Shown here: positions 3,117-25,305 of the stretch, one piece after another
Layout: each line of letters opens with the position of its first letter
Numbering within the stretch: the stretch's first letter is position 1
Origin: a virus
Length of the DNA: 27,766 nt
Strand: one strand, 5' to 3'
Virus record (IMG/VR): IMGVR_UViG_3300042568_000604
Span: 1-27,766 of that record
Position numbers and translations under genes: made by a program
The notes under the pieces: model-generated
Databases searched by the model: none
What the model saw: only the letters and a program-made list of their open reading frames with translations
Told to the model about the DNA's origin: nothing

Positions 3117-3119
3117 CTT

Positions 3120-4811
3120 ATGGGTATTGGTGGCGGTTCTAAATTTACACTCGAAAAAACCTGGCGAGCAAGCGGTGTCGGTACGACGAAGTTTAATAGC
3201 CCAGGAAATATCGCAATTCCTTATGGTAGGAATAGTATTCTTGTTTCAGGACAAGGTGGATCTGGAACTGCTTTAATTCCTGGGCCTGGAGCTAACTTTA
3301 ATATTGTCGCCGGAAATGCAACCGGTACATTTAATATTATTCCCGGGACCGGAAGCACATTCAACGTAATTCCTGGACCTGGAGCTAACTTTAATATTGT
3401 ACCAGGAAATGCAACCGGTACATTTAATATTATTCCCGGGACCGGAAGCACATTTAATATTATTCCTGGACCTGGAGCTAACTTTAATATTGTACCAGGA
3501 AATGCAACCGGTACATTTAACAAAGTTCCTGGGACCGGAGCTAACTTTAATATCATCTTTCCACAAACAGGCACATTTAATATTCTCTTTCCGGGAACAG
3601 GCACATTTAACATTGTTGCAGGAACTGGAACAGGCACATTTAATAAAGTTCCTGGAACTGGAAGCACATTCAACGTAATTCCTGGGCCTGGAGCTAACTT
3701 TAACATTGTTGCAGGAACTGGAACCGGTACATTCAATAAAGTTGCAGGAACTGGCACAGGTACATTCAATAAAGTTGCAGGAACTGGAGCTGGCTTTAAC
3801 GTTGTTGCGGGAACTGGAGCTGGCTTTAACGTTGTTGCGGGAACTGGAGCTGGCTTTAACGTTGTTGCGGGAACTGGAGCTGGCTTTAACGTTGTTGCAG
3901 GAACTGGAACTGGTAGTTATAATACTAGCGGTGGAAATGCAGTCTCTTATAATGCTCCTAGTATTAAATATGGCCCAGGATTTGTGAATGCATTTAACGC
4001 TATAAGTAATGGTCCTCAAAACTTCAATGCGCCTTCAAATGGTCCACAAAACTTCAATGCGCCTTCAAATGGCCCACAAAACTTCAATGCGCCTTCAAAC
4101 GGCCCTCAAAACTTCAATGCGCCTTCAAACGGCCCTCAAAACTTCAATGCACCTACAAATGGGCCACAAAACTTCAATGCTCCAACGAATGGCCCACAGA
4201 ATTTTAATGCACCTACAAATGGGCCACAAAACTTCAATGCTCCAACGAATGGCCCACAGAATTTTAATGCTCCAACGAATGGCCCACAAAACTTTAATGC
4301 GCCAACGAACGGGCCTCAAAACTTTAATGTCGCGAATGGTCCTCAGAACTTCAATGTCGCGAATGGTCCTCAGAACTTTAATGCGCCAACGAACGGGCCT
4401 CAAAACTTTAATCCTGCAACTAACGGGCCTCAGAACTTCAATGCGCCTACAAATGGTCCTCAGAACTTTAATGCGCCAACGACCGGGCCTCAAAACTTTA
4501 ATGCGCCAACGACCGGGCCTCAAAACTTCAATGCGCCTTCAAATGGCCCACAAAACTTCAATGCACCTTCGAATGGTCCACAAAACTTTAATCCTGCTAC
4601 CAATGGTCCGCAGAATTTTAATGCTCCAACTCCGGCGGTTCCAGGAAATGCAGCAAATGCGCTCGGTATTACTTTCCCCGGATCAAATGCCGGTGGTACG
4701 CCTGCGCCGGTGATAAATAATCAGACGGCAAGCTACTATTCTTTTCCGGATGGCCAATCACATTCGGTAACTGTAGCGCCCGGAGGATATATAGATATTA
4801 CTATTGAATAA
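3120..4811 (+). CDS. Phe-Asn decapeptide-repeat virion protein (probable fibre/adhesin)
   Basis: A 563-aa low-complexity protein of no family I can name. Residues 1-50 form an N-terminal cap (RASG at 16-19, FNSP at 25-28, SGQGG at 43-47). The same cap occurs in the 1120-aa glycine-rich protein at 14817-18179. Residues about 55-270 are roughly ten-residue units of the form TFNIIPGTGS or NFNIVPGNATG. Residues about 297-505 hold 21 copies of NGPQNFNAPT or a close variant. A conserved Phe-Asn pair therefore recurs about every ten residues along almost the whole chain. A short cap follows (SYYSFPDGQ, then VAPGGYIDITIE). Such regular spacing fits a beta-roll, beta-solenoid or fibrous rod. It is cotranscribed with the fibre before it and hydroxylase after it. 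A role as accessory fibre or adhesin is inference. Confidence 0.75.
   Translation: MGIGGGSKFTLEKTWRASGVGTTKFNSPGNIAIPYGRNSILVSGQGGSGTALIPGPGANFNIVAGNATGTFNIIPGTGSTFNVIPGPGANFNIVPGNATGTFNIIPGTGSTFNIIPGPGANFNIVPGNATGTFNKVPGTGANFNIIFPQTGTFNILFPGTGTFNIVAGTGTGTFNKVPGTGSTFNVIPGPGANFNIVAGTGTGTFNKVAGTGTGTFNKVAGTGAGFNVVAGTGAGFNVVAGTGAGFNVVAGTGAGFNVVAGTGTGSYNTSGGNAVSYNAPSIKYGPGFVNAFNAISNGPQNFNAPSNGPQNFNAPSNGPQNFNAPSNGPQNFNAPSNGPQNFNAPTNGPQNFNAPTNGPQNFNAPTNGPQNFNAPTNGPQNFNAPTNGPQNFNAPTNGPQNFNVANGPQNFNVANGPQNFNAPTNGPQNFNPATNGPQNFNAPTNGPQNFNAPTTGPQNFNAPTTGPQNFNAPSNGPQNFNAPSNGPQNFNPATNGPQNFNAPTPAVPGNAANALGITFPGSNAGGTPAPVINNQTASYYSFPDGQSHSVTVAPGGYIDITIE
3286..3930 (+). repeat. First Phe-Asn repeat array, with 30-bp tandem copies
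   Basis: About twenty degenerate units of roughly 30 bp code TFN/NFN decapeptides. Within it, 3781-3900 holds four head-to-tail 30-bp copies; three are identical and the fourth differs at one base. This indicates recent expansion. Changes in copy number keep the frame. Confidence 0.85.
4009..4634 (+). repeat. Second array: 21 units coding NGPQNFNAPT
   Basis: Twenty-one near-identical units, mostly 30 bp, lie head to tail. The copies at 4081-4110 and 4111-4140 are identical. The 60-bp blocks 4141-4200 and 4201-4260 are nearly so, showing duplication of two units at once. Two central units are shortened to a VA linker. There are no spacers. Confidence 0.9.
4712..4719 (+). promoter_or_regulatory. 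Possible weak late promoter, GATAAATA
   Basis: A match to the NATAAATA form lies inside the end of the repeat-protein gene, 113 bases before the hydroxylase start at 4833. Seven-base matches of this kind are expected by chance several times in the window, so position is its only support. Confidence 0.25.
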
Positions 4812-4832
4812 GTGACTTGACGAGGATTTACT

Positions 4833-10404: not shown

Positions 10405-10975
10405 ATCTACTCTCGATGAAGATATTCGCTTAACTTTTCTTGAAGGTTTAAATAGGCATACGAACATGCATTACTTTGATCGTAATGCGCCTACAAATAA
10501 AACAGATGAAGCTGTGCTTGAATTTCTCGACAGAGAACAGTTTAATTGTAACAAAACTCATATTGAATATTGGTATCAGGCGTATAAATCTTCTGGAGAT
10601 TTGTGGCCTCATGTAGATTTTAATGAAAAGCTTCGGCACAGAATTGAGGCTGGAGAAAAGTTGAAACCAGAAGAATTAATGTCTCCAATTACCATATCGT
10701 GTTACTTAGAAGCAATCGATCTTGAAGGCGGAGAATTTTGTATTTCTGAAAGAAGTTGGTTAGACTATGAAAAAGAACTGAGCCCTCCGGAAGTTTTAAA
10801 AGAAGAATTGTTAAAATATACACACGAGTCTTTTCAACCTACCGAAGGTGCGGTCTTATACTTCGAAGGCAGTCGATACTACCATTGGGTCAATGAAATC
10901 AAAAGCGGCTCTCGCAAGAGCATACTCATCAATTTCTGGGACAATTGTAGTCTTAACTCCACTTCGCCCAATTAA
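10352..10975 (+). CDS. 2OG-Fe(II) oxygenase
   Basis: A 207-aa dioxygenase-like protein. H87 and D89 in WPHVDFN give the iron pair, H178 in YYHWV the distal ligand, and R188 in GSRKSILINFW the 2-oxoglutarate salt bridge. EAIDLEGGEFCI matches the EGG-E strand of prolyl-hydroxylase relatives. The ATG at 10352 has an AGAGG site about 9 bases upstream and overlaps the sulfotransferase by 53 bases; a second ATG at 10373 is possible. It is the last gene of the plus-strand operon. Its stop codon overlaps the stop of the minus-strand operon. A region from about 92-110 is charged and may form a lid. Confidence 0.78.
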   Translation: MFLKDLKMYHGNSRIIRRSTLDEDIRLTFLEGLNRHTNMHYFDRNAPTNKTDEAVLEFLDREQFNCNKTHIEYWYQAYKSSGDLWPHVDFNEKLRHRIEAGEKLKPEELMSPITISCYLEAIDLEGGEFCISERSWLDYEKELSPPEVLKEELLKYTHESFQPTEGAVLYFEGSRYYHWVNEIKSGSRKSILINFWDNCSLNSTSPN

Positions 10976-11580
10976 TTTCTAATGTCTATATTACCAGAAA
11001 TAGAAATACGATGTTCGTCTGAAGTTTGAAACGGATATACCTGATGCTTAAGATAATTTGGAAACATAATAAGAGAACCTTCCCATGTCTTATCAATATC
11101 TAATTGAGTCGTACTAATTCCACCGTCTAATGAGTTATAAATGAATTCAAACTTTGATGCAACTTTATAGTTTGATTCTCTTACATTTGGCATATTTAAT
11201 TCCTCTTCTAAATCATAAGGAATTGCAATCCATATCACCCATGAAATAGCTTTGTGGTGAAAATGTATTGGATTATATTCGTGTTTCTTCTGAAAATTTA
11301 CCCAAGCATCATTATCAATGACATAATTATGATTTTCATAAAAATTAAATTTTCTTCTATATTCAAGAAACGTTTGCTCTATGCATTCTCTAAACTGCCC
11401 GTTAATAACATACTGAAATTCTGTTTCTAATTGCCCAGCTAAATTAGTATTGTATTTTTCCGGATTATTATCAACTTGCTTTTGCAAGTCACAAGTCAAC
11501 TCAGCAAAAATAGAAACTGGAATTCTTGTTTTAAGAACTCCTGGGTTATAAAGTTTTATTTCTGAAAATTCTAAGTTCAT
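10972..11580 (-). CDS. Putative 2OG-Fe(II) oxygenase (PF13759/TIGR02466-like)
   Basis: A 202-aa protein with the signatures of the small phage/bacterial putative 2OG oxygenase family. AWVNFQKKHEYNPIHFHH ends in H106-x-H108. SLIMFPNYLKHQVYPF supplies distal H179 in the usual FP-x-x-x-x-H-x-V context, and R191 lies in EHRISISGNI. The second iron ligand is His where Asp or Glu is classical, as in part of this family, so activity is less certain. The ATG has a GGTGAA-like site upstream. It is last in the minus-strand enzyme operon, converging on the plus-strand operon. Confidence 0.75.
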   Translation of the reverse strand: MNLEFSEIKLYNPGVLKTRIPVSIFAELTCDLQKQVDNNPEKYNTNLAGQLETEFQYVINGQFRECIEQTFLEYRRKFNFYENHNYVIDNDAWVNFQKKHEYNPIHFHHKAISWVIWIAIPYDLEEELNMPNVRESNYKVASKFEFIYNSLDGGISTTQLDIDKTWEGSLIMFPNYLKHQVYPFQTSDEHRISISGNIDIRN

Positions 11581-11598
11581 AATTTCACCGATAATAAT

Positions 11599-11820
11599 TT
11601 AGTTAATAGTAATTGTAGAGGTGTCTTTACATATGCTCATAGTACCTTCGCAACAGATATTCCAATCTTGACCTGTCTTTGCCCCACGGCTTGGAACATT
11701 AATGATAACATTTTTACATAGATATTCTTTACCATCTTCGAAAACGCGCCAGACATGATCTTCTGTCCCGCGATTAGGTTGTCCTCTTGATTGATTGAAT
11801 CTTATCATAAACTCAGACAT
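11599..11820 (-). CDS. Small conserved phage protein
   Basis: A 73-aa protein, Arg- and Asn-rich at the start (RFNQSRGQPNRG) and with three Cys near the end (NICCEGTMSIC). It has the look of a small conserved protein of T4-like marine phages, from memory only. No function can be assigned. It begins one base after the stop of the oxygenase upstream (TAATATG) and lies 18 bases before the next oxygenase gene. This tight position between two oxygenases implies coexpression. Confidence 0.65.
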   Translation of the reverse strand: MSEFMIRFNQSRGQPNRGTEDHVWRVFEDGKEYLCKNVIINVPSRGAKTGQDWNICCEGTMSICKDTSTITIN

Positions 11821-11821
11821 A

Positions 11822-12460
11822 TTAGATTATTTCTGCTGTTGCATCATATACTATAGGTTCAATGTACGGACGTGTACCAATGTTCATGTGAATAAATTTG
11901 AAAGGTTTGGTTGATGTGTTACGAGTAAAGCTATGCGGTAGCCAGGAATTTGCAAACATTAGTTGACCAGGAACTGGCGTAAAATTAATAGACGATGTTG
12001 CTGTGGTAATGTTAGAAGAATTATGTTCGTATAGTGGTAACATAAGTTTCATTGGTCGCGGATCATGAATCACCATTCGCGGAGGATCTTTCGGGCACTC
12101 TAAAAAATAAAAAGCAACTAACTGACAGTCGCTGTGATTATGATACTCCATTGATGAATACTTATGGTGTTCTTGACTCCAACATTCGGTAAGATAAGTC
12201 GAAAGTCCATTCATGTTGTATCCTTGATCGCTCAAAAGATTCCATGCTGTGTTTAATGTGTACTGTATCAGTGGAAGAAGATCTTCTTCGTTAGACACAT
12301 CTGCTTGCACGACTGGATATACATCGTTTATTTTTGTTATTTTGCGCGCGGCCCTTAACGCCGCATTTGATGCTGCTCTTGAGAAATCAAGAAGTTCTGG
12401 CTTCATAATACTATAGATAGGTGAGCTAAAATACTGCCACTGATCAAGTATGTCTGTCAT
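11822..12460 (-). CDS. Putative 2OG-Fe(II) oxygenase (PF13759/TIGR02466-like)
   Basis: A 212-aa relative of the preceding oxygenase type. MEYHNHSD contains H107-x-H109, with D111 nearby. FYFLECPKDPPRMVIHDPRP matches the family's conserved strand-turn. GQLMFANSWLPHSFTRN carries distal H176. The Arg that normally binds 2-oxoglutarate appears to be K188 in KPFKFIHMN. With His instead of Asp and Lys instead of Arg, it may be inactive or use a different cosubstrate geometry. An AAGGATT ribosome site lies about 8 bases upstream of the ATG. Confidence 0.72.
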   Translation of the reverse strand: MTDILDQWQYFSSPIYSIMKPELLDFSRAASNAALRAARKITKINDVYPVVQADVSNEEDLLPLIQYTLNTAWNLLSDQGYNMNGLSTYLTECWSQEHHKYSSMEYHNHSDCQLVAFYFLECPKDPPRMVIHDPRPMKLMLPLYEHNSSNITTATSSINFTPVPGQLMFANSWLPHSFTRNTSTKPFKFIHMNIGTRPYIEPIVYDATAEII

Positions 12461-12475
12461 AATAAAATCCTTATG

Positions 12476-12934
12476 TTATGTATATTGGGAAAGATCAGCC
12501 TCTATCACTGTATCTAAAAACAGTCGGTTTCCAATCTTATTCCAACCACTGTTGACTTGATAAAATATATTTAAACCGTTGTTCAAACCATACTGAATAG
12601 CCCAACTAAGTATTTCGGCTGTTAGCGGAGCGCCTGCTTCAAGCAGTTGTAAAAAGCTAAGATCAGGATTTTCGTGTTGTCTCCAAACCATAATTACGTT
12701 TGATTCGTCTGGTTTCATCCACATCGGAATAGTATCAAGACCGAGTGGAAACTTTTCATTTCCTAACCATACACAGCTAAACGATTTGCACGGATTCTCA
12801 GGTCGTTGTTCATGTATCGAACATCCTTTTGTAGTTACAAAATGACATTTCCTTCCTGGCCAAAATTGATGGCCAAGAGCTTCTCCAGTTAACCAACCGC
12901 AGCACTTCGTGCAACTTCCACATTCTCTTGTCAT
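12476..12934 (-). CDS. YkgJ-type CxxCxxCC cysteine-cluster protein
   Basis: A 152-aa protein with the cysteine-cluster signature of the YkgJ family (PF03692). C5, C8, C11 and C12 form CGSCTKCC. Four further Cys (C30, C38, C49, C54) lie in GRKCHF, KGCSI, NPCK and SCVW. Eight cysteines in the first 55 residues suggest binding of zinc or iron. The C-terminal half is ordinary alpha/beta sequence. Family members are thought to bind metal, but their role is poorly known. It sits between genes for iron-dependent oxygenases, so iron handling or oxidation-dependent assembly is conceivable; that is inference from position. Confidence 0.8.
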   Translation of the reverse strand: MTRECGSCTKCCGWLTGEALGHQFWPGRKCHFVTTKGCSIHEQRPENPCKSFSCVWLGNEKFPLGLDTIPMWMKPDESNVIMVWRQHENPDLSFLQLLEAGAPLTAEILSWAIQYGLNNGLNIFYQVNSGWNKIGNRLFLDTVIEADLSQYT

Positions 12935-12940
12935 ATTATC

Positions 12941-13537
12941 TCACTTAAATTGAGGACCAGCTAACCATACTACTAGAGTTTTACGAATGCCTTTTGTCAC
13001 AGGAGTTACTCTGTGTAAAATAAAGGACGGGAATGCAACTACTAAACCTTTTTGTTTTGTGACTTGAGTCGGCACGGGTGCATCAAATATCTCAAGATCT
13101 CCCCCCTCGTATTCAGAAGGATCAGATAATTGTATTACAAGAGATAATTTGCGAGGCGCATTCGTTGCATTTCCACCTCTGTCAAGATGCCACGTATAAT
13201 GATCGTCTTTTCCATCGTATATAGTATACTGAAAGTCCTCTACAAATCCCCATATATCTAGATTGAAGAATTCACCGTTCAGTTGTCTTGCTATGAAAGC
13301 AATTCTATCATATATAAAATTAGTCTCGGGCGTAAGATTTATCCAACCTATTTTAGATGATCTAACTGCTTCTTCAACTTTACTATCAGGTCCAACACTA
13401 GCAGATTTGATCGTGAGACTATCACCAATACTAACTATTTTATCGATCTCTTCTTCAGTAAAACCATCACGCCATGATGCAAAAGAAATTTCTGGTATAC
13501 CTAACGATGGAGAAGGAGCTATTTGATATACTGCCAT
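12941..13537 (-). CDS. PKHD-type 2OG-Fe(II) hydroxylase, paralogue
   Basis: A 198-aa homologue of the hydroxylase at 4833-5426 on the other strand. H117 and D119 (TWHLD), H175 (LHRV) and R185 (GIRKTLVVW) complete the dioxygenase site. The two share FQYT, HYTWH, LSDPSEYEGG and the GF-x-x-EE-x-DKI start. Sequence outside the core has diverged, so the duplication is old or arrived by separate routes. The ATG overlaps the stop of the uncharacterised family member upstream (TAATG). The pairing is the same as on the plus strand but in reverse order. Confidence 0.88.
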   Translation of the reverse strand: MAVYQIAPSPSLGIPEISFASWRDGFTEEEIDKIVSIGDSLTIKSASVGPDSKVEEAVRSSKIGWINLTPETNFIYDRIAFIARQLNGEFFNLDIWGFVEDFQYTIYDGKDDHYTWHLDRGGNATNAPRKLSLVIQLSDPSEYEGGDLEIFDAPVPTQVTKQKGLVVAFPSFILHRVTPVTKGIRKTLVVWLAGPQFK

Positions 13538-14253
13538 TATTTACGCTCCCAAATATTATCTCGATAATGGGATTCATGACTTTGAAGCTTTCTACGTGTA
13601 CCTTTGAGTGCTTTCAGTTCAGTTTCATTGAATGCTCTACATACATTTTTCGAAAACAAAGTATCTCTTTTAATTGGAATAACCTGCATTAACGGTGTAC
13701 CAGCAGGTAGAATACCTTTAAAATTGGGTTCGTTCCAAACAAATGGAAAGTTAATAAACTCAAAATAACCATCGCAGTCTACCATACCCGAAAAACAAGT
13801 AAATCTTGGATCAGGTCTATTTAATGGTGGAACAAACAACAGTGAGTATCCTTTCGGGCAGTTGATTGCCCACCAGTTCATGAATTTAATTGGAGGTTTT
13901 GGTAAATGTGGAGCGGGGCATTTGTCAGATGTTACTTGCCACTGTAAATGATTCTCGATCATTGCTCTCGGATATTTGCTGTTGTATTCAATGAACGAAC
14001 AATCTTCATTCGAAGTGATTTCAACATCAGCAACGAGTGGAATAATCCAACCCGTGATCATCGCATCAAGAAAAGGTGGGCATCTTTTGAGAGTAGATTG
14101 ATCAAAGCCTACATCCTTCTTCATTGGCAAAGCTTTATACCATTCTGGTATCAGTTTGCGGGCAGGATAAGGTTCTGGTATATTTCCTAAATCATCATCA
14201 TAGCAAAGAAATTCTAGTTTAGGCTCATTCTTTTCAAAAAACGAAAACATCAA
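13537..14253 (-). CDS. Uncharacterised phage protein, DUF6065-like (copy 3 of 3)
   Basis: A 238-aa protein closely matching copy 1 at 5420-6157. Both have PEWYK, a K-x-C-x-P-x-x-DAM block followed by G-x-x-IPL, KFMNWW against KFVNPW, SLLFVPPLN against STLFIAPIN, FSGMVDCDGY against LSGLVDTDTY, and AGTPLMQVIPIKRD. The first 45 residues also align (Phe-Phe or Pro-Phe-Lys, then a Leu-Glu-Phe strand). Function unknown; the Pro-rich core with many aromatic residues suggests a binding or beta-rich fold. It overlaps both neighbours and lies next to a PKHD hydroxylase, as does copy 1. Confidence 0.7.
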   Translation of the reverse strand: MMFSFFEKNEPKLEFLCYDDDLGNIPEPYPARKLIPEWYKALPMKKDVGFDQSTLKRCPPFLDAMITGWIIPLVADVEITSNEDCSFIEYNSKYPRAMIENHLQWQVTSDKCPAPHLPKPPIKFMNWWAINCPKGYSLLFVPPLNRPDPRFTCFSGMVDCDGYFEFINFPFVWNEPNFKGILPAGTPLMQVIPIKRDTLFSKNVCRAFNETELKALKGTRRKLQSHESHYRDNIWERK

Positions 14254-14456
14254 TTTTGTCCATTTCCAGGTTTTTCATAGTGTATTCCACCAGATTCAAT
14301 AAATTTTTTACATTGCTCGACGTCGCTCGCACCTCTCAGAATATGATCATCATGCAAACTAAAATGTAAGCTTGAGATCCATATTCTGAGATGTGGTGGA
14401 AGTTTGTCATAGCAACGCATTACCAATGCCATTCTTTGTATGTTAACATGTTCCAA
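14250..14456 (-). CDS. Small protein of unknown function
   Basis: A 68-aa protein if begun at the TTG at 14456, or 60 aa from the ATG at 14432. A weak GAG ribosome site about 9 bases before the TTG makes the longer form slightly better, but neither start is strong. Sequence features are MRCYDKLPPHLRIW and the segment DDHILRGASDVEQCKKF, which is probably helical. It ends in an ATGA overlap with the uncharacterised family member and would be the first gene of the minus-strand enzyme operon. Function unknown. Confidence 0.55.
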   Translation of the reverse strand: MEHVNIQRMALVMRCYDKLPPHLRIWISSLHFSLHDDHILRGASDVEQCKKFIESGGIHYEKPGNGQN

Positions 14457-14468
14457 ATGAATGACTCT

Positions 14469-14478
14469 ATTATATATA
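14469..14478 (-). promoter_or_regulatory. Possible promoter (TATATATAAT)
   Basis: The short gap before the enzyme operon holds an AT-only TATATATAAT read on the minus strand. It contains a sigma70-like TATAAT and resembles a degenerate late octamer. The start codon is only about 13 bases away, so the leader would be very short. No -35 box is convincing. Confidence 0.3.
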
Positions 14479-14484
14479 TGTAAA

Positions 14485-14790
14485 TTACAGGGCTGCTAGT
14501 TCGACTAAGTTGCTCTCTGTGATGGCATCTAAGCCAATCAATGCTTGTTTGACTGCGGTAAAATCGTCATGTTTTTCATCGTAGATGACAAATGGAAAAT
14601 CAGTAAATTCTCCAATATCCCATGTATTTAGAGCATTGAATACAGATTCGTATTGACTACTATCGTTGTATGATAAATGAGTAAACTCAATGTTATTATC
14701 CTGTAGCCACTGATAGGCTGCAGCAGAGTCGTTGCCACCTGTCGTAGTCAAACCAGTATAAAGATAAACGTCTTTAATTCCTACTAGCAT
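14485..14790 (-). CDS. Thioredoxin/glutaredoxin-fold-like protein lacking CxxC
   Basis: A 101-aa protein with the secondary-structure order of a glutaredoxin. KDVYLYTG is a first strand, NDSAAAYQWLQDNNI a helix, EFTHLSYND a second strand. DFPFVIYDE is a strand opened by the cis-Pro-like F-P, and AVKQALIGLDAI a final helix. The position of the redox Cys pair is occupied by TGLTTTGG and there is no Cys at all. If the fold is right it cannot do thiol chemistry and may be a binding or scaffold protein. It follows the glycine-rich protein gene, with an AAAGGAAA ribosome site. Confidence 0.5.
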   Translation of the reverse strand: MLVGIKDVYLYTGLTTTGGNDSAAAYQWLQDNNIEFTHLSYNDSSQYESVFNALNTWDIGEFTDFPFVIYDEKHDDFTAVKQALIGLDAITESNLVELAAL

Positions 14791-14816
14791 GTATTGTTTC
14801 CTTTTTGTTATTTGTG

Positions 14817-17800
14817 CTAAAATGTTACACTCATCGTACCATTAGCGCTGCCTGTTCCAATATTTATAGAAACTATTTGATATGGGTATACTTTTACTGA
14901 TACTGAATTTGTCGTAGTACCAATATTACCAGCGTTTCCTGATGCTCCAGGATTTGATGTGCCGGCTGTTCCGGCGGTCGCTCCAGTTCCAGCACTACCT
15001 GCTGTGCCAGTATTTCCTGCTGCTCCTGCGCCTCCTGGATTTCCAGCCGCACCATTTGTAGCTCCAGTTCCAGCTGCTCCTGTTGTGCCAGCATTACCAG
15101 CAGCTCCGGCACCGCCTGGGTTTCCAGCCGCACCATTTGTAGCTCCAGTTCCTGCATTGCCAGTCGCTCCAGCATTTCCTGCTGCTCCTGCACCTCCTGG
15201 ATTTCCAGCTGCACCATTTGTAGCTCCAGTTCCTGCATTGCCAGTCGCTCCGGCATTTCCTGCAGCGCCGGCATTACCAGGACTTCCTGCTGCTCCTGGA
15301 TTTGCTCCAGTTCCTGCCGCTCCTGTTGTACCAGCATTTCCGTTGGCTCCTGCACCGCCTGGACTTCCTGCTGCTCCTGGATTTGCTCCAGTTCCTGCCG
15401 CTCCTGTTGTACCAGCGCTTCCTGCAGCGCCGGCATTACCAGGACTTCCTGCTGCTCCAGCGTTTGCTCCAGTTCCTGCGGCCCCAGTATTTCCAGCACT
15501 TCCATTGGCGCCTGCATTACCAGGACTTCCTGCTGCTCCAGCGTTTGCTCCAGTTCCTGCGGCTCCTGTATTTCCTGCGCTGCCTGGTGTTCCTGCATTA
15601 CCTGAACCACCGGCAGCGCCCGAAAGAAGTCCTCCATTGCCGCCTGCGCCGCCGTTGCCGTTAGTAGCACCACTTATGTTGCCTGAATTACCCGCGGTAC
15701 CAGCATTGCCGGCGCCGCTACCACCTTGCTTTAAAGTCCAACCCGATGCTCCGCCTCCGCCTCCGCCGCCTCCGCCGCCTCCGCCTACACCAGCGTTGCC
15801 AGGAGATCCGGAGTTACCCGCCGTACCACCAGCTCCTCCTGCACCACCGGCGCCATTTGTTCCTGGGTTACCAGCATTGCCAGTGGCTCCTGGATTCCCA
15901 GCATTTCCTCTTGCACCGCCTGCACCACCAGCACCGTTATTTCCTGGATTACCAGCATTGCCAGTGGCTCCTGGATTACCAGCATTACCAGCAGCACCGC
16001 CTGCACCACCAGCACCGTTATTTCCTGGATTGCCGGCATTACCAGTGGCTCCTGGATTACCAGCATTACCACCAGCTCCTCCTGCACCACCAGCCCCATT
16101 GGTGCCAGGATTGCCTGTTCCTCCAATACCACCAGATGTCCCAGCTGTACCACCAGCACCACCAGTTCCTGCAGCTCCATTATTACCGGGATTGCCTGTT
16201 CCTCCAATACCTCCGGAAGTACCGGCCGATCCTCCGGCGCCGCCTGTACCAGCAGCTCCATTGTTACCGGGATTGCCTGTTCCTCCAATACCACCAGATG
16301 TCCCAGCTGTACCACCAGCACCGCCAGTTCCTGCAGCCCCATTATTTCCGGGATTGCCTGATCCACCTGGATTTCCAGAAGTTCCGGCCGAGCCAGCTGC
16401 TCCGTTTGTAGCATTTCCTCCAGCCCCACCAGTACCACCGGTTCCACCTGGAAAATTAGCTAAGGAACCAAACGTTGAAACGTTGCCTGGGTTTCCACTT
16501 GATCCCGGATTTCCGTTTGCTGCGCCAGTCCCAGCATTACCAGCAGCTCCGGCACCGCCTGGATTTCCTGCTGCTCCTGGATTAGCTCCAGTGCCAGCAT
16601 TACCATTTGCTCCAGTATTTCCTGCTGCTCCGGCATTTCCAGGGCTCCCTGCTGCCCCTGGATTAGCTCCAGTGCCGGCATTACCATTTGCACCTGGATT
16701 TCCTGCTGCGCCGGCATTACCTGGATTGCCAGTAGATCCAGCGGTTGCCCCTGTTCCTGCATTACCATTTGCTCCAGTATTTCCTGCTGCGCCTGCATTA
16801 CCTGGATTTCCTGCTGCTCCAGCAGTTGCCCCTGTACCTGCGGCCCCTGTTGTGCCGGCATTACCATTAGCACCGGCACCGCCAGGACTTCCTGCTGCTC
16901 CGGCGTTTGCTCCAGTTCCAGCCGCCCCTGTTGTGCCGGCATTACCATTGGCACCAGCTCCACCAGGACTTCCTGCTGCTCCAGCGTTTGCTCCAGTTCC
17001 TGCTGCTCCAGTATTTCCAGCATTTCCATTGGCCCCAGCTCCACCGGGACTTCCTGCTGCTCCAGCAGTTGCCCCTGATCCTGCGGCTCCAGTATTTCCA
17101 GCACTTCCATTGGCACCCGCACCACCTGCACTCCCTGAATTACCAGTCACTCCGCTACCGCCGCCTCCGCCGCCGCCACCGCCGCCGCCGCAAACGCACC
17201 CCCCAAGATTTGCGCTTCCACCAAAGCCACCATTTCCTCCGCCAGGAGAGCCTCCGGCGCCGCCGGGGGCAGAACAAGGCGCAAATGGGGTGCCAAAACA
17301 ACCGCAGCCACCGCCCGGACTACCACCGCTACCGGCTCCGCCACCGCAAGGTCGGGCTGAACCTTGTCCGCCGCCTCCTCCCGTACCTGCGCTACCGCCA
17401 GTGCCACCAGCACCGCCGGCACCATTATTTCCTGGATTTCCAGAGTTTCCTGTGGCACCTGGATTCCCAGCATTTCCTCTTGCACCGCCAGCACCGCCGG
17501 CACCATTGGTACCAGGATTACCAGAGTTTCCTGTGGCACCTGGATTCCCAGCATTACCAGCAGCACCGCCAGCACCGCCGGCGCCATTTGTTCCTGGGTT
17601 ACCAGCATTGCCAGTGGCACCTGGATTCCCAGCATTACCAGCAGCACCGCCTGCACCACCGGCACCATTAGTACCGGGATTGCCGGAGTTTCCTGTCGCT
17701 CCAGCATTTCCAGCAGTACCACCAGCACCGCCAGCTCCGCCAGCACCATTCGTACCTGCATTGCCAGTGGCACCTGGATTCCCAGCATTCCCTGCAGCAC

Positions 17801-18179
17801 CTCCGGCTCCTCCTGGGCCGCCAGCACCGTTTGTGCCAGCATTTCCTGATGCGCCGGGATTTCCAGATGTTCCAGCTGTACCACCAGCACCGCCAGCTCC
17901 GCCGGCCCCGTTTGTGCCAGCATTTCCTGATGCGCCAGGATTGCCAGATGTCCCAGCTGTACCACCAGCACCACCAGTTCCTGCGGCCCCATTATTTCCA
18001 GGATTACCAGCATTGCCAGCAGTACCAGGATTGCCTGCATTACCAGCGTTTCCATTGCCGCCACGACCAGATATATCTATAGAATATACGCCTGCAGGAA
18101 CGACGAATGTTGCGGGGGCATTGAATACTTGTGTGGCTGGAGCAGCCTTACCTGAAGCTCTAAATACATTTAATGGCAT
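14817..18179 (-). CDS. Giant glycine-rich Gly-X-Y protein (probable adhesin/fibre)
   Basis: A 1120-aa protein made almost only of Gly, Ala, Asn, Thr, Ser and Pro, with just nine charged residues by my count. Residues 1-43 are an N-terminal cap (RASG 7-10, FNAP 19-22, SGRGG 37-41) shared with the 563-aa repeat protein. Four Gly-X-Y arms follow at about 44-266, 342-566, 578-798 and 862-1087 (223, 225, 221 and 226 residues). Arms 1 and 2 are joined by a Cys-rich insert (267-341), arms 3 and 4 by an insert with GWTLKQ (799-861), and arms 2 and 3 by a short non-repeat turn around VSTFGSLANFPG. A C-terminal cap (1088-1120) has VSVKVYPYQIVSINIG. Units are 27 residues. Such sequence suits collagen or polyglycine-II packing as in the gp38 adhesins of T-even-like phages. 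GC content is far above that of neighbours because of Gly/Ala/Pro codons. An AGAAGG ribosome site precedes the ATG. Confidence 0.8.
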   Translation of the reverse strand: MPLNVFRASGKAAPATQVFNAPATFVVPAGVYSIDISGRGGNGNAGNAGNPGTAGNAGNPGNNGAAGTGGAGGTAGTSGNPGASGNAGTNGAGGAGGAGGTAGTSGNPGASGNAGTNGAGGPGGAGGAAGNAGNPGATGNAGTNGAGGAGGAGGTAGNAGATGNSGNPGTNGAGGAGGAAGNAGNPGATGNAGNPGTNGAGGAGGAAGNAGNPGATGNSGNPGTNGAGGAGGARGNAGNPGATGNSGNPGNNGAGGAGGTGGSAGTGGGGGQGSARPCGGGAGSGGSPGGGCGCFGTPFAPCSAPGGAGGSPGGGNGGFGGSANLGGCVCGGGGGGGGGGGSGVTGNSGSAGGAGANGSAGNTGAAGSGATAGAAGSPGGAGANGNAGNTGAAGTGANAGAAGSPGGAGANGNAGTTGAAGTGANAGAAGSPGGAGANGNAGTTGAAGTGATAGAAGNPGNAGAAGNTGANGNAGTGATAGSTGNPGNAGAAGNPGANGNAGTGANPGAAGSPGNAGAAGNTGANGNAGTGANPGAAGNPGGAGAAGNAGTGAANGNPGSSGNPGNVSTFGSLANFPGGTGGTGGAGGNATNGAAGSAGTSGNPGGSGNPGNNGAAGTGGAGGTAGTSGGIGGTGNPGNNGAAGTGGAGGSAGTSGGIGGTGNPGNNGAAGTGGAGGTAGTSGGIGGTGNPGTNGAGGAGGAGGNAGNPGATGNAGNPGNNGAGGAGGAAGNAGNPGATGNAGNPGNNGAGGAGGARGNAGNPGATGNAGNPGTNGAGGAGGAGGTAGNSGSPGNAGVGGGGGGGGGGGGASGWTLKQGGSGAGNAGTAGNSGNISGATNGNGGAGGNGGLLSGAAGGSGNAGTPGSAGNTGAAGTGANAGAAGSPGNAGANGSAGNTGAAGTGANAGAAGSPGNAGAAGSAGTTGAAGTGANPGAAGSPGGAGANGNAGTTGAAGTGANPGAAGSPGNAGAAGNAGATGNAGTGATNGAAGNPGGAGAAGNAGATGNAGTGATNGAAGNPGGAGAAGNAGTTGAAGTGATNGAAGNPGGAGAAGNTGTAGSAGTGATAGTAGTSNPGASGNAGNIGTTTNSVSVKVYPYQIVSINIGTGSANGTMSVTF
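14861..14868 (-). promoter_or_regulatory. T4-type late promoter inside a coding region, TATAAATA
   Basis: An exact TATAAATA on the minus strand lies in the 3' end of the glycine-rich gene, 71 bases before the start at 14790. It could drive the thioredoxin-like gene and the enzyme operon down to 10972 independently of the giant repeat gene. About three exact octamers are expected by chance in both strands, so position matters. Confidence 0.5.
14919..15596 (-). repeat. Gly-X-Y arm 4 (B type)
   Basis: Codes residues 862-1087. It has 27-residue units in which one Gly of the triplet series is replaced by Ala (GTGANAG or GTGATNG), as in arm 2. The 81-bp period is visible in the DNA. Confidence 0.8.
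15786..16448 (-). repeat. Gly-X-Y arm 3 (A type)
   Basis: Codes residues 578-798. Units such as GAAGTGGAGGTAGTSGGIGG and GNAGNPGATGNAGNPG keep Gly at every third position, as in arm 1, without the Ala substitution of the B arms. One Arg (GGARGNAG) is at the place equivalent to an Arg in arm 1. Confidence 0.8.
16482..17156 (-). repeat. Gly-X-Y arm 2 (B type)
   Basis: Codes residues 342-566 with 27-residue units of the form GAAGTGANAGAAGSPGGAG. One Gly-to-Ala change recurs at the same place in each unit. Pro stands in the third (Y) position of triplets. Confidence 0.8.
17382..18050 (-). repeat. Gly-X-Y arm 1 (A type)
   Basis: Codes residues 44-266. Gly stands at every third position, and blocks such as GTNGAGGAGGAAGNAGNPG recur every 27 residues (81 bp). 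Confidence 0.8.
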
Positions 18180-18194
18180 CGTATAACCTTCTTA

Positions 18195-19940
18195 TTAACC
18201 TGTATTTGCAAGAGATAAGGCACCGAGATATGTTGTACCTCCGTCGAGGGTAAAGAAACTGAAGACATCGATTTTATTTGCACCAGTTGACATCGTCGGT
18301 GTCGAAGCATTCGGATATTTAACAGAAGCCGGCCACGTGATTATTCTCGATCCCGTGGCGTCTTGTTTACAATGAAGTGTGAAACTGTATGCATTGCCCG
18401 ATGCAGGAGGATTTGAAAATGTAATTGTAATAGACGCGTTGGCCAATGTCAAATCGAATACGTTGGATAGTGATAAATCTACAGTGTGAGTAGTTGTTGT
18501 TATAGTATTGGCAACAACTGCTTCTTTGTATGAAGCAAGCTTAGGATTACTTAACACATTATTTGCCATTGCAACGTTGGCATTAAGAGTAGTAATACCA
18601 GCTACTTGTAGCGTCGAGGTTACGTTGGCAAAACCAGTGATCGTAGTATTACCGGCAGCAAGGGTGGTAATTCCAGATGCAGCACCTGCGGCTACAAGAG
18701 ACGAAACAGCAAGTGGTTGACTGTTTGTAGACCAGCGATCATTTGTTTCATCCCAGACGAACTGAACGTTGGCAGACGTCCCGCGCATGATCTCGAAGCC
18801 AGCATTCTCAGTAGGAGGATTAGCTCCAAGATCTGCATTCAGCGTAACAATATTATCACCAACGTCGAGTGTTGTGGTGTTCACGTAAGTTCTTGTACCG
18901 GAAACTGTCAGGTTACCCGAGAGTGTAAGATCGGCGATTGATAATGTGGAATTCACATGAATACCAGTCGTATTGACCGTAAGTGTTGGCCCAGCAGTTA
19001 CTCCAATTGTACCACTAGTTGTAATCGTTCCACCAGAAAGTCCATTAGCCGTGGCGACTGAGGTTACACCTCCACCGGTGGCACCTTGAGCACCTTGAGC
19101 GCCTTGAGCACCAGTAACACCTTGAGGTCCAGCAACACCTTGAGCACCAGTTGCGCCAGTTGCGCCTTGAACACCTTGAGCGCCGGCAACACCTTGAGCA
19201 CCAGTTGCGCCAGTTGCGCCTTGAACACCTTGAGCGCCAGCAACACCTTGAGCACCTTGATCACCCGTTGTGCCTTGAGCACCAGTTGCGCCAGTTGCGC
19301 CTTGAACACCTTGAGCGCCAGCAACACCTTGAGCGCCTTGAGCACCCGTTGTGCCTTGAGCACCTTGTGCACCGGTTGCACCTTGAGCACCTTGAGCGCC
19401 TTGAGATCCGAGAGTAAGTGAAGCACCATTTAAAGTTGTAACTTGAACAATATCACCAGCAATCGCATTCGATGTAAGCGTTAAGACCGTGGTATTTGTC
19501 GTGTTATAGTCAACGGCCGCAATCTGACGCGAACCATTAATGAAGACGCTTTCAAGCCCTAAAGTATATACGAATGTGTTTGATGTGTCGTCTAATCCTG
19601 TAAACACCGTGGTATTCGATGTGACAGTAAACGTATAGGTATTCATGGTAGCAGCATTTGCCGTACCGCCTGAGCCCCAATAAACTCCTGTTCCATTCGA
19701 TGAAAGAACTTGGCCGTTGGATCCAGAAGATCCGTTGGCTACGATCGTAGTGACAGCGAGAGAAGAGAGATTTGAACCAACTTCAAAGATGGCATTCGCA
19801 GCATCTGAAGAGAAGACTTTACGGTCAGTTAGGTTGACTGCAAATTCACCGTTATCAATAAAGCCGGAATTTGCTACGTCAGTAGTATTAGCTGTACGAC
19901 CAGAAATTGTCGTGCGCTTAAATTGAAATTTATTTGCCAT
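18195..19940 (-). CDS. Collagen-like tail fibre protein
   Basis: A 581-aa fibre protein. The N-terminus [14 protein letters not shown] then [14 protein letters not shown] is the attachment-type start common in marine T4-like fibres. Beta repeats with the motif [13 protein letters not shown] follow. A collagen-like Gly-X-Y stalk of more than 35 triplets is coded at about 19071-19409. Then come an [10 protein letters not shown] fibre module and a C-terminal domain (about 459-581) related to that of the plus-strand fibre at 1248-3116. I chose the ATG at 19940, which has a GAGGTTGAG site directly upstream, over a TTG at 19946. It probably trimerises and is driven by the late promoter at 19991-19998. 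Confidence 0.87.
18634..18656 (-). repeat. Right copy of a 23-bp exact inverted repeat shared with 2442-2464
   Basis: On the minus strand this reads identically to 2442-2464 and codes the same AGNTTITG residues in frame. It lies near residue 429, just before the C-terminal domain shared with the opposing fibre. Confidence 0.85.
19071..19409 (-). repeat. Collagen-like Gly-X-Y repeat
   Basis: Codes an almost unbroken series of Gly-X-Y triplets ([12 protein letters not shown], with one GDQ and one GPQ). Blocks such as [19 protein letters not shown] repeat with nearly identical DNA, so in-frame length change is likely. Confidence 0.85.
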
Positions 19941-19947
19941 TCTCAAC

Positions 19948-19980
19948 CTCTATATAGAGCAACGAAGCGGTTATGTAACC
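19948..19980 (-). other. Palindrome and small inverted repeat in a fibre leader
   Basis: The 5' leader of the 18195-19940 fibre holds a perfect 12-bp palindrome, CTCTATATAGAG (19948-19959), and GGTTATGTAACC (19969-19980), an inverted repeat with a very small loop. The palindrome overlaps the start of the GAGGTTGAG ribosome site, so folding or dimer formation could affect translation. Weak by itself. Confidence 0.4.
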
Positions 19981-19990
19981 CCTAATATTC

Positions 19991-19998
19991 TATTTATA
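19991..19998 (-). promoter_or_regulatory. T4-type late promoter, TATAAATA
   Basis: An exact TATAAATA on the minus strand lies 51 bases before the fibre ATG at 19940. It overlaps the last codons of the 63-aa gene upstream. Position and orientation are those of a genuine late promoter. Confidence 0.7.
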
Positions 19999-20185
19999 CA
20001 GAAGTATCTTCAGCTTTTTTATTTTTATTTCCAAGCTTTTCAAGATCAACAATTTTTGCTTGAAGACTGGTCATGGTTTTATCGGCCATGACCAGTCTTG
20101 TTTCTAGCATGATGTTCTTACTTGTAAGATCATGTACACTCGCGAGTAATCGATTGATGTACTCATTTACAAATTCAGCTTCCAT
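19994..20185 (-). CDS. Small coiled-coil virion-region protein
   Basis: A 63-aa protein predicted to be one long helix. Leu/Ile/Val spaced in heptads run from FVNEYINRLL to AKIVDLEKL, and the tail is Lys-rich. It begins 3 bases after the stop of the large fibre gene. Similar small coiled-coil genes sit between fibre genes in marine T4-like phages (from memory). It may help fibre trimerisation or attachment, but this is a guess. Its codons contain a perfect 14-bp inverted repeat, unusual for so short a gene. Confidence 0.65.
   Translation of the reverse strand: MEAEFVNEYINRLLASVHDLTSKNIMLETRLVMADKTMTSLQAKIVDLEKLGNKNKKAEDTSV
20063..20099 (-). terminator. Perfect 14-bp stem-loop inside the small coiled-coil gene
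   Basis: Arms 20063-20076 and 20086-20099 are perfectly complementary around a 9-base loop. No T-run follows on either strand, so it is not a standard intrinsic terminator. It lies just after the fibre gene at 20189-22138 and before the late promoter at 19991-19998, a place that fits transcript 3'-end formation or RNA processing. The hairpin is certain; terminator function is inferred. Confidence 0.5.
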
Positions 20186-20188
20186 AAA

Positions 20189-22138
20189 TTAGAATGTCCC
20201 GCCGTCGAGGGTTGCGTATACAACTGCTGTACCGTTAGACTGAAGCACGAATCCAGTAGAGCCAACAGCTAATTTTCTAAAACCGTTCGAAGAGTTAGCA
20301 ACTAAAATGTCTTCTGCAGTAACAGTCGCGAGTCCAGTACCACCGCTTGTTCCAGGCAGTGCAGTCGAAAGACTCAATGTATTCGCTGTGATACCAACCG
20401 CGAGTGTCGAGTTCGCAGTAAGAGTAACGTTAGTCGCGTTCGAAACCAAACCACCAGAGTTTAGGAATGCTTGTAATGTAGCAGTAGTATAACCGGCTGC
20501 TGCAGTGTCTACAGTTGTTGTAGGTTCTGTTTGAGAACCAGCAAAGAGCTTATAAACGCCATCTGTAGCATCACGGAAAAGACCGGTATATTTAGCTCCA
20601 GTGGCACCGTATTGACCATAAAGACCGATATCAAGAATGTCGGTTGTTGCGTTTCCGTTTGCAAGCTCGATCAGCGAATCTTGGACTGTCAGGTTGGTAG
20701 TATCGATTGTCGAAAGCGTACCGAGAACAGTCAGATTTCCGGAAAGAGAAAGATCTGTAATCGAGAGTGCAGTATTAACATGGAGTCCAGCAGAGTTGAC
20801 CGTGAGTGTTGAACCAGTGGTAAGGCCAACTGCATCTGCAGTGACATTAATACCGTTAGCAGCACCAACATGAACTCCAGTCGCGTTAGCTGTAAGACCA
20901 TCACCGCCAACAACGTTGATACCAGCGCCATCAACAGAAATACCGTTAGCAGCTTTGGCAAAGACGCCTGAAGTATTCGATACAATACCGTTGTTTGCTA
21001 CAACAGCAATCGTGGCTGCACCACCTTCACCAGATGAGGATCCAGAAATACCGTTACCAGCTGTGATAGTAGCAACATAGTCGCCTGATGTACCCGAACC
21101 AAGAGCAACGTCGCCTGAAAGTTGCGATGTGGCAATTGAAAGTGCAGCAGCATTGACATAAACGCCCGAGGTATTCGAAACAATCGTACCGTTACCAGAT
21201 ACGACATGCACACCTGTTGCGTTCGAAGCAATACCAGCTCCGGCAACAACAAAAACGCCTGTTGCGTTTGCAGATAGACCGTTATTTGCAATAACGTGTA
21301 CGCCTGAGGTATTTGAAGCAAGACCGCTATTTGCAACTACAGCAATCGCGTCTGCAGAGACGCTGATACCGTTACCAGCACCAACATCAAGAGTTACCTC
21401 GCCAGATGTACCGCCACCAGTAAGACCAGAACCGGCTACGACTGATGTAATATCACCATCTTGAGGTGTTACCCAGTATACAGCTGTTCCGTTCGATGCA
21501 AGAACTTGTCCTGCAGTACCATTTGTGCCATTTGCATTAAGAGCAACGTTAGTTCCAATATTGATCTGTGTGGCATTTGCTACGAACGCCGTACCAACAC
21601 TCACAATCGCTGCGTTCACGGTGCCTGTAGAGAATACACCGGTGGCATTCGCAACAAAAGAATTAGAACCAACGACGAAGTTACCGCCAGAGCCAGCAAG
21701 AACGCCGCCGGCAACAGACAGTTTATTATTGGTATTATCAAACGTAAAGTCTGCGTCTCCGGCTAATGCGCCAGAATTATTAAATTGAACTTGTGTATTT
21801 GAACCAGATACGCCAGAAGTAGGAGTTTCCCAATAAGCGGCTGTTCCATTTGAACTCAGTACTTGTCCGTTGGTACCCGTCGAACCATTGGCTGTAACTG
21901 TTGTCACAACAGCGTTAGCAACAATAATCTTGTCGATACCAGAGGTACCATTCGCAACGAGTGCTTGGTTGGCGGTCAGTATACCAGGATTAAATTTACC
22001 GGCAATGGTGATCGAAGCACCATTCGAACCAATAAATAAGTGATCGCCATTTGCTGTAAACGCTAATTCACCGTTAGCTAATGTTGGCGCATCAGCTGTC
22101 GTTAACGACCTTTTAATTTGAATTAAATTGTCTGCCAT
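20189..22138 (-). CDS. Large repetitive tail fibre protein
   Basis: A 649-aa fibre protein without a collagen segment. The start NLIQIKRSLTTADAPTLANG and then ELAFTANGDHLFIGS is a typical fibre N-terminus. [13 protein letters not shown] and [13 protein letters not shown] are tandem copies of a common fibre motif. Residues about 230-440 contain repeated units of about 17 residues of the form NGLSANATGVFVVAG, likely a beta-helical shaft. An LSGNLTVLGTL module and a C-terminus ending LDGGTF follow; the next gene upstream ends in a similar LDGGSF. An AAAGGAAT ribosome site precedes the ATG. Distal or side tail fibre is likely. Confidence 0.82.
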   Translation of the reverse strand: MADNLIQIKRSLTTADAPTLANGELAFTANGDHLFIGSNGASITIAGKFNPGILTANQALVANGTSGIDKIIVANAVVTTVTANGSTGTNGQVLSSNGTAAYWETPTSGVSGSNTQVQFNNSGALAGDADFTFDNTNNKLSVAGGVLAGSGGNFVVGSNSFVANATGVFSTGTVNAAIVSVGTAFVANATQINIGTNVALNANGTNGTAGQVLASNGTAVYWVTPQDGDITSVVAGSGLTGGGTSGEVTLDVGAGNGISVSADAIAVVANSGLASNTSGVHVIANNGLSANATGVFVVAGAGIASNATGVHVVSGNGTIVSNTSGVYVNAAALSIATSQLSGDVALGSGTSGDYVATITAGNGISGSSSGEGGAATIAVVANNGIVSNTSGVFAKAANGISVDGAGINVVGGDGLTANATGVHVGAANGINVTADAVGLTTGSTLTVNSAGLHVNTALSITDLSLSGNLTVLGTLSTIDTTNLTVQDSLIELANGNATTDILDIGLYGQYGATGAKYTGLFRDATDGVYKLFAGSQTEPTTTVDTAAAGYTTATLQAFLNSGGLVSNATNVTLTANSTLAVGITANTLSLSTALPGTSGGTGLATVTAEDILVANSSNGFRKLAVGSTGFVLQSNGTAVVYATLDGGTF

Positions 22139-22156
22139 TTGGCTATTCCTTTTAGG

Positions 22157-22731: not shown

Positions 22732-22749
22732 TTAATTCTTCCGCTATGT

Positions 22750-23193: not shown

Positions 23194-23196
23194 TTA

Positions 23197-23568: not shown

Positions 23569-23572
23569 TTTA

Positions 23573-25297: not shown

Positions 25298-25305
25298 ATA
25301 TTACC

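What the first reader, a model, noticed from the sequence alone, without database searches (positions are those of the whole stretch)
14817..18179. Giant glycine-rich protein has four nearly equal arms: possible out-back-out-back adhesin
The Gly-X-Y series is broken only at two inserts (267-341 and 799-861) and one turn (567-577), giving arms of about 223, 225, 221 and 226 residues in an A-B-A-B order. Equal lengths are expected if each B arm folds back beside an A arm. The inserts would then lie together at one distal tip, and the caps and turn at the base. T-even gp38-type adhesins use packed polyglycine-II helices with variable tip loops, on a far smaller scale. If helices are extended (about 0.3 nm per residue), arms would be near 70 nm.
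Basis: partly seen in the sequence, partly recalled or inferred. Interest (0 to 1): 0.82.

Follow-up and report, generated by a model that had tools for sequence, protein, structure and literature searches.

The report
Giant four-armed glycine fibre-tip adhesin
A phage tail-fibre protein appears to run out and back twice along two giant glycine-rich hairpins rising from one small base, and across relatives all four arms lengthen and shorten together, which suggests a new long version of a known kind of phage receptor-binding tip.

Summary
The 1120-residue protein (14817-18179, minus strand) is laid out as described: cap, arm A1, tip, arm B1, central turn, A2, tip, B2, cap. One correction: each B arm loses the in-phase glycine eight times, about once per 27 residues; A arms almost never do. 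All four arms share a 27-residue repeat.

Across 27 non-redundant family members (arms 9-380 residues) the four lengths move together (ICC 0.97; 16 giants, contrast r 0.93). In 10 of the 16 giants the repeat period is also matched between arms, or B exceeds A by three where B carries a short insert; six show no clear common period. Four close variants changed one arm only, so equality is not absolute.

AlphaFold models of two shorter homologues are confident only at both ends, the central turn and the arm roots, with 3+2+3 strands; that these form one base is inferred. The best phage match is Pam3 gp24 (modest Z), whose glycine loops run out and back.

Not shown: polyglycine-II packing, ~70 nm length, oligomeric state, receptor binding. 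Verdict: out-back-out-back topology supported; a greatly elongated variant of known glycine-rich fibre tips.

The parts
18066..18179 (-). N-cap (residues 1-38): three strands of the base by homology to modelled relatives
   Evidence: strands modelled in L067 and L121, not in the window protein itself
17382..18065 (-). arm A1 (residues 39-266): 76 Gly-X-Y triplets, no missing Gly, 27-residue repeat
17154..17381 (-). tip 1 (residues 267-342): Cys/Phe-bearing insert flanked by polyglycine
16485..17153 (-). arm B1 (residues 343-565): return arm, 27-residue repeat, in-phase Gly replaced 8 times
16443..16484 (-). central turn NVSTFGSLANFPGG (residues 566-579): two strands of the base by homology
15786..16442 (-). 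arm A2 (residues 580-798): Gly-X-Y, one missing Gly, 27-residue repeat
15621..15785 (-). tip 2 (residues 799-853): polyglycine plus GASGWTLKQGGSG insert
14919..15620 (-). arm B2 (residues 854-1087): return arm, 27-residue repeat, in-phase Gly replaced 8 times
14820..14918 (-). C-cap (residues 1088-1120): three strands of the base by homology
18195..19946 (-). upstream collagen-repeat tail fibre, proposed docking partner of the tip protein (gp37-like position)
   Evidence: phrog_9017 and other tail-fibre hits; fibre-like ends, judged by eye, lie upstream of 12 of the 13 non-redundant giants examined (not L084; L149-L151 not examined)
13537..14253 (-). phrog_7084 protein; likeness to DUF6065 is by eye (no Pfam match)
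   Evidence: similar-looking proteins follow several homologues
12941..13537 (-). 2OG-Fe(II) oxygenase of the same gene set
3120..4811 (+). probable paralogous capped protein: one hairpin, non-collagen arms, 21 and 21 repeats
   Evidence: motif counts by my regular expressions; cap likeness read by eye

Best explanation
A tail-fibre tip adhesin with an out-back-out-back fold. Modelled in two homologues: 3 strands in the N-cap, 2 in the central turn and 3 in the C-cap. Inferred: these eight strands form one jelly-roll base built from three distant pieces of the chain; both excursions leave between an odd and the following even strand, hence from the same end. Each excursion runs out along an A arm of nearly unbroken Gly-X-Y, makes a variable tip, and returns along a B arm that pairs with A repeat for repeat and tolerates one or a few non-Gly per repeat. 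Inferred: the arms are left-handed polyglycine-II helices packed side by side; at 9.2 A per triplet (PMC7830552) 225 residues span about 69 nm. The termini lie at the base and dock onto the fibre encoded just upstream, as gp38 docks on gp37; the two tips meet the host. If the base trimerises as in Pam3 gp24, a rod would hold 12 helices. Length is set by repeat number, which evolves in step in all four arms.
For: Anatomy and phase. Lockstep lengths: window 228/223/219/234; L091 284/280/273/281 (about two 27-residue units more in each arm); L108 195/196/192/235 as parsed, where B2 swallowed part of tip 2 (192). ICC 0.956 for 16 giants, 0 of 20000 permutations; contrasts r 0.93. Matched periods in A and B arms of different sequence: 27/27 (window, L091, L108), 33/33 (L089), B = A+3 where B carries an AP(C/N)(T/S)WP-type insert (L135, L128, L090, weakly L121), 24 or 48 in L149 and L151. 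Non-Gly at the Gly position in 16 giants: A arms 9 of 2202 triplets, B arms 321 of 2280. AlphaFold: L067 and L121 have the three base segments at block pLDDT about 79-98 with 8 strands; beyond about 30 residues from the base nearly all is under 50. Pam3 gp24: Z 6.6, 84 residues, rmsd 2.5, 27% identity, model range 17-329, best of the 10 chains aligned (L067); Z 6.0, 85 residues, 21% (L121). Pam3 loops run out and back to variable tips. Tips diverge faster than arms in several pairs. Gene order. A probable paralog with unrelated arm chemistry has repeat counts 21/21, and relatives 27/27 and 24/24. Window change points in repeat type lie 4.0-4.33 units from the base in all four arms (P 0.027).
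Against: Single-arm length variants exist: L038 (+27, B2), L040 (-27, A2), L113 (-27, B2), L138 (-90, B2); the window gene has no exact repeat of 61 nt or more, so assembly collapse is not an easy excuse there. The change-point test is not significant over 7 giants (P 0.09). Six of 16 giants have no clear common period (L073, L134, L084, L136, L150, L133). One relative of the paralog counts 25 v 27. Distal arms have pLDDT under 50 and no prediction of the window protein was made. The aligner gives only first and last aligned residues, so contact of the central turn with the caps was not seen directly. Unrelated proteins score 6.1-6.4 with the L121 model, above Pam3. In 11 short relatives equality is loose (ICC 0.56). 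Base and C-cap boundaries were chosen by hand.
Confidence: 0.65

Rival explanations
1. Same base and topology, but the arms are not 70 nm rods: each repeat folds as a short zig-zag of polyglycine-II helices (3-4 triplets each, as in snow-flea antifreeze protein and gp38), giving a thick short stack.
For: PGII sandwiches are described with helices of three to four triplets (PMC7830552 passages); matched periods would also follow; the recurrent G(T/S)GA(T/N)x motif in B arms could be a turn (my reading and 42 outputs).
Against: A1 runs 76 triplets without losing a Gly, and I recognised no turn motif in its 27-residue unit; window B arms break once per unit, not two or three times. An unbroken Gly phase does not by itself exclude turns.
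Confidence: 0.21
2. Collagen-like: three chains pair arm by arm into parallel Gly-X-Y triple helices (one for A arms, one for B arms, per hairpin) above a trimeric base.
For: Pfam Collagen scores 74.8 bits (cut-off 27.2) on the protein; Gly-X-Y strict in A arms; C1q/TNF-type domains form trimers in known relatives (recalled; Pam3 gp24 trimer).
Against: Collagen-like stretches of three fibres in this window (107 triplets) have Pro in X 17%, Gly in X or Y 0%, Gln 30%; the arms (278 triplets) have Pro in X 0.4%, Gly in X or Y 13%, Gln 0%. B arms lose Gly every repeat. A single continuous parallel trimer is unlikely if the inferred base is right.
Confidence: 0.13
3. No pairing: arms are a disordered glycine brush, and equal lengths reflect duplication and homogenisation of repeats.
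For: Tandem repeats slip easily; close variants differ by one to three units in one arm; six giants have no clear common period.
Against: A and B units are different sequences yet keep matched period and number in 10 of 16 giants; lengths stay equal across lineages of different period; codon mixing at the Gly position suggests selection; the probable paralog shows repeat parity with unrelated arms.
Confidence: 0.07

Closest known systems
Pam3 gp24 tail fibre (PDB 7YPX; PMC9608196, passages read)
   Same: TNF-like base; glycine-rich loops running out and back along the axis; conserved stem, variable tip
   Different: Pam3: six short loops (12 motifs in a 125-residue domain), N-terminal helical baseplate domain, all in one fibre protein. 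Here: two loops with arms of about 225 residues, no helical N-terminal domain, separate gene after a fibre gene
gp38 of S16/PP01 (PDB 6F45; PMC12892980, passages read)
   Same: Tip protein at the end of a long tail fibre; glycine motifs carrying variable loops
   Different: gp38 has a beta-helix domain and a lattice of 10 short motifs (S16, as told in the Pam3 paper); no gp38-type match of the window protein appeared in PHROGs or the phage records (low-complexity masking limits the latter)
PE_PGRS / snow-flea antifreeze PGII sandwiches (PMC7830552, passages read; PE_PGRS structure there is a homology model)
   Same: Gly-rich triplets
   Different: Helices of 3-4 triplets; here arms of up to 114 triplets (L128 A1). 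A split jelly-roll base is not known to me for those
Phage collagen-like fibres (PF01391)
   Same: Gly-X-Y
   Different: X/Y composition, B-arm interruptions and inferred hairpin topology

Membership tests
Pam3 gp24-type glycine-rich fibre adhesin | TNF-like jelly-roll base with glycine-rich loops inserted between strands | tested here: inconclusive
   AlphaFold models of two homologues fit (7ypx Z 6.6 and 6.0), but Z is under 8, unrelated rows score as high with L121, and the window protein itself was not modelled
Pam3 gp24-type glycine-rich fibre adhesin | Variable distal tips on a more conserved stem | tested here: met
   L107/L126 arms 91-98% identical, tip 2 52% (their tip 1 difference is partly a parsing difference); also lower tip identity in window/L091 and L149/L151; not in L091/L135
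Pam3 gp24-type glycine-rich fibre adhesin | N-terminal helical domain for the baseplate | tested here: not met
   Protein starts with a 38-residue cap; no helices in the two homologue models
Polyglycine-II sandwich proteins | Packed PGII helices | tested here: inconclusive
   Gly phase and composition fit; arms pLDDT under 50
Polyglycine-II sandwich proteins | Helices of 3-4 triplets | tested here: inconclusive
   A1 has 76 triplets without a missing Gly, which suggests longer helices but does not exclude turns
T-even gp38 adhesin | Separate gene directly after the fibre gene | tested here: met
   Window order (15 nt gap); in seven of 13 giants examined the gap is 330-420 nt
T-even gp38 adhesin | Sequence similarity or beta-helix attachment domain | tested here: inconclusive
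   No gp38-type match in PHROGs or phage records, but the tblastn low-complexity filter limits this and the beta-helix domain was not tested
Collagen-like proteins | Strict Gly-X-Y throughout | tested here: not met
   Window B arms lack Gly 16 times; B arms of 16 giants lack it in 321 of 2280 triplets
Collagen-like proteins | Parallel three-chain triple helix | not testable with these tools
   needs CD, diffraction or cryo-EM

The most novel reading that the evidence does not exclude
A general fibre-building scheme: one small split jelly-roll base carries hairpin arms of arbitrary chemistry whose out and back strands pair repeat for repeat, so fibre length is set by a count kept equal in every strand. 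Gly-X-Y arms (four per chain) and, in the same genome, FNIVPG/NGPQNFNAPT arms (two per chain) would be two materials on one chassis, reaching tens of nanometres without a trimeric coiled rod.
Probability: 0.43. Interest if true: 0.86.

Novelty: new variant of a known kind. Interest (0 to 1): 0.72.

Why it matters
The glycine-rich tips of phage fibres found in the papers read here are small (Pam3: 12 motifs in 125 residues). A version whose arms are about twenty times longer per strand, with lengths locked together over evolution, would be a new way to make a long fibre from a folded-back chain, and would place variable receptor loops on a very long reach. It gives a sequence-only rule (equal repeat number in paired arms) for recognising such hairpin fibres. 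No Pfam, PHROG or NCBIfam model matched the caps of the proteins tested.

Tried and rejected
Searches that gave nothing: megablast of window 11000-27766 and tblastn of the whole protein, of its N-cap and of homologue L067 against 50,697 phage records (low-complexity masking limits these); Pfam on isolated caps at E 10; Foldseek of the L067 model against PDB, best E 1.9. BFVD gave 97 matches up to E 10, two at E 0.001 or better, with TM-scores of 0.25 or less in the rows shown, taken as uninformative. Two named phages with a related fibre end (DC31, CRP-603) carry a different, not glycine-rich protein in the next position; the next genes of CRP-9, Mel-JY34 and S-MbCM7 were listed but not translated. 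One genome-contig scan found one locus, a collagen-like MAG protein. Further loci hold ordinary collagen-like proteins (L099, L100, L105, L129, L146). PDB sequence hits are mainly collagens and 8zxl/9ius 'spindlefibril'; no paper for the latter was found.

Parsing: a first arm parser ran through the tips and was discarded; swallows part of tip 2 into B2 for L108 (235) and L135 (283), where one search gives 192 and 258; one search was run both as parsed and with B2 set to 205 and 258. In one search I trimmed L108 B2 to 205. One search's null for change points was badly matched and was replaced, whose result is weak (window P 0.027, four 27-family proteins P 0.025, seven giants P 0.09). Rows left out of the 27: six length variants or near-duplicates (L038, L040, L113, L138, L107, L126), truncated ORFs (L064, L082, L092, L097, L115, L116, L117, L123, L131, L132, L152), L119 (second half lost), other near-identical copies, and an unrelated L133 ORF. 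With the six put back, 22 giants give ICC 0.952. Literature: (listings) and passages of PMC9608196, PMC12892980, PMC7830552; no long-arm version was seen in those searches.
Full report
What is there. The ORF at 14817-18179 (minus strand) encodes 1120 residues. It reads N-cap 1-38, A1 39-266, tip 267-342, B1 343-565, turn 566-579, A2 580-798, tip 799-853, B2 854-1087, C-cap 1088-1120 (differs by a few residues). The four arms are 228, 223, 219 and 234 residues. All four arms share a 27-residue repeat of nine triplets, though A and B units are different sequences. Gly codons at the in-phase position are mixed and repeat units share only 43-52% of codons at identical residues; I infer that the pattern is old and selected.

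Relatives. Of 62 IMG/VR loci returned for the window protein, 59 encode it identically, L037 has two substitutions, and L038 and L040 differ by 27 residues in one arm. Degenerate DNA patterns that excluded the window's own codons and scans with homologues found divergent complete relatives from 317 to 1599 residues. They share the N-cap (about FNxPGTFxVPxGVxxVxVTGRGGxGN), a central motif ending FPGG or similar, and a C-cap, with four arms between. Four of 11 larger virus records tested carry a T4-type gp23 capsid gene, including the 198 kb and 360 kb ones.

The decisive comparison. I parsed arm lengths with a left-to-right HMM after setting base and C-cap strings by hand: 29 of 30 proteins, then four more. 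After removing six variants or near-duplicates, 27 remain (window protein included), 16 with A1 over 80 residues. Single arms range from 9 to 380 residues, yet the four arms of a protein agree: ICC 0.966 (27) and 0.956 (16), 0 of 20000 permutations reaching either; within-protein CV 7% against 36% between giants. With a tree from the caps, contrasts of the 16 giants correlate at mean r 0.93, and all four arms change in the same direction in 13 of 15 contrasts, 14 after correcting two B2 values; for all 27, r 0.89 and 21 of 26. L091 exceeds the window protein by 56, 57, 54 and 47 residues, about two repeats in each arm. In 11 short relatives the agreement is looser (ICC 0.56).

Register. A and B arms keep the same period in the window, L091 and L108 (27/27) and in L089 (33/33). 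In L135 (27/30), L128 and L090 (33/36), and more weakly L121 (33/36), the B period is three longer and those B arms carry an AP(C/N)(T/S)WP-type insert. L149 and L151 show 24 or 48. That is 10 of 16 giants; L073, L134, L084, L136, L150 and L133 have no clear common period. Across the 16 giants the Gly position is non-Gly in 9 of 2202 A-arm triplets and 321 of 2280 B-arm triplets. In the window protein the repeat type changes 4.33, 4.0, 4.11 and 4.33 units from the base in A1, B1, A2 and B2 (P 0.027); over seven giants the same test gives P 0.09, so I count it as weak.

Structure. AlphaFold on L067 (329 aa, 12-row alignment, mean pLDDT 64) and L121 (669 aa, 14 rows, mean pLDDT 51) gives the same picture: strands in three groups (3, 2, 3) in N-cap, central turn and C-cap, those segments and the roots of the arms at block pLDDT of about 79-98, and most of the rest below 50. 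I saw no coordinates or PAE; that the three groups form one base is inferred from their joint confidence and from alignments to single domains of other proteins that run from N-cap to C-cap. VIA-align's best of 10 chains for L067 is Pam3 gp24, Z 6.6 over 84 residues, 27% identity. For L121 it scores Z 6.0, below a lactobacillus protein (6.4) and several carboxylase and complement chains (6.1-6.3), while C1q/TNF-type domains score 3.9 to 5.4. These Z values are modest. That both loops leave the same end is my inference from odd-to-even strand order in an antiparallel jelly roll. In Pam3, glycine-rich loops run parallel to the fibre axis and end in less conserved tips (PMC9608196 passages).

Not ordinary collagen. 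Collagen-like stretches of three fibres in the same window have Pro in X 17%, Gly in X or Y 0% and Gln 30%; the arms have 0.4%, 13% and 0%. Pfam nevertheless calls the protein collagen, which I regard as composition only.

Setting. One search examined 13 of the 16 giants (not L149, L150, L151). By eye, 12 of 13 follow a fibre gene whose end resembles that of 18195-19946, five of them at 12-37 nt and seven at about 330-420 nt, where a small gene can lie between (seen for L091); L084 and most short relatives follow 2OG-oxygenase-like genes instead (label by eye). I infer that the giant is the exchangeable tip on that fibre. The window holds a fibre, tip, DUF6065 or DUF6065-like, 2OG-oxygenase set twice (the likeness of 13537-14253 to DUF6065 is by eye). 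The second tip gene, 3120-4811, has cap motifs like these but one hairpin, with A and B repeats of 11.8 and 10 residues, counted as 21/21; relatives give 27/27, 24/24 and 25/27 (regular expressions chosen by me after seeing the sequences).

Tips. Identity of tips is lower than of arms in window/L091, L149/L151 and for tip 2 of L107/L126 (arms 91-98%, tip 52%), but not in L091/L135.

Against. Four variants changed a single arm by one to three units. The window gene has no exact repeat of 61 nt or longer, so these may be real; strict equality is then a long-term tendency, not an absolute need. No experiment or confident model shows the distal arms, and the window protein itself could not be aligned or modelled.

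Verdict. The out-back-out-back reading is supported; polyglycine-II rods of about 69 nm (225 residues at 9.2 A per triplet, PMC7830552) are the likeliest form. Novelty: an extreme, length-locked variant of the known glycine-rich fibre-tip adhesin.

Noticed in passing
window 3120-4811 (+); L066, L069, L070: Probable paralog with similar caps but arms of FNIVPGxxTGT and NGPQNFNAPT repeats; A and B repeat counts 21/21, 27/27, 25/27, 24/24, suggesting the same pairing rule in a different material.
   Followed up: partly
window 4833-5426, 10352-10975, 10972-11580, 11822-12460, 12941-13537: Five 2OG-Fe(II) oxygenase genes near proteins whose arm prolines are almost all in the Y position (42 Y against 1 X in the window arms): the phage may hydroxylate its own Gly-X-Pro arms. 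Untested.
   Followed up: partly
window 1248-6157 and 12941-19946: A fibre, tip protein, DUF6065 (or DUF6065-like by eye) protein and 2OG oxygenase set occurs twice in the window, on opposite strands.
   Followed up: partly
B arms of L135, L128, L090 and relatives: B repeats carry an AP(C/N)(T/S)WP-type insert and the B period is three residues longer than the A period: possibly a regular bulge along the rod.
   Followed up: no
L038, L040, L113, L138: Close variants differing by one to three whole repeats in a single arm: possible natural unbalanced alleles.
   Followed up: partly
window 22402-22731 and 23197-23568 (-): Two proteins with PHROG matches to tail-fibre assembly families (the first has its best match in a family of unknown function); one could be a folding helper of these fibres.
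   Followed up: no
window 9700-10404 (+): Sulfotransferase-domain gene (Pfam) in a phage tail-fibre region.
   Followed up: no
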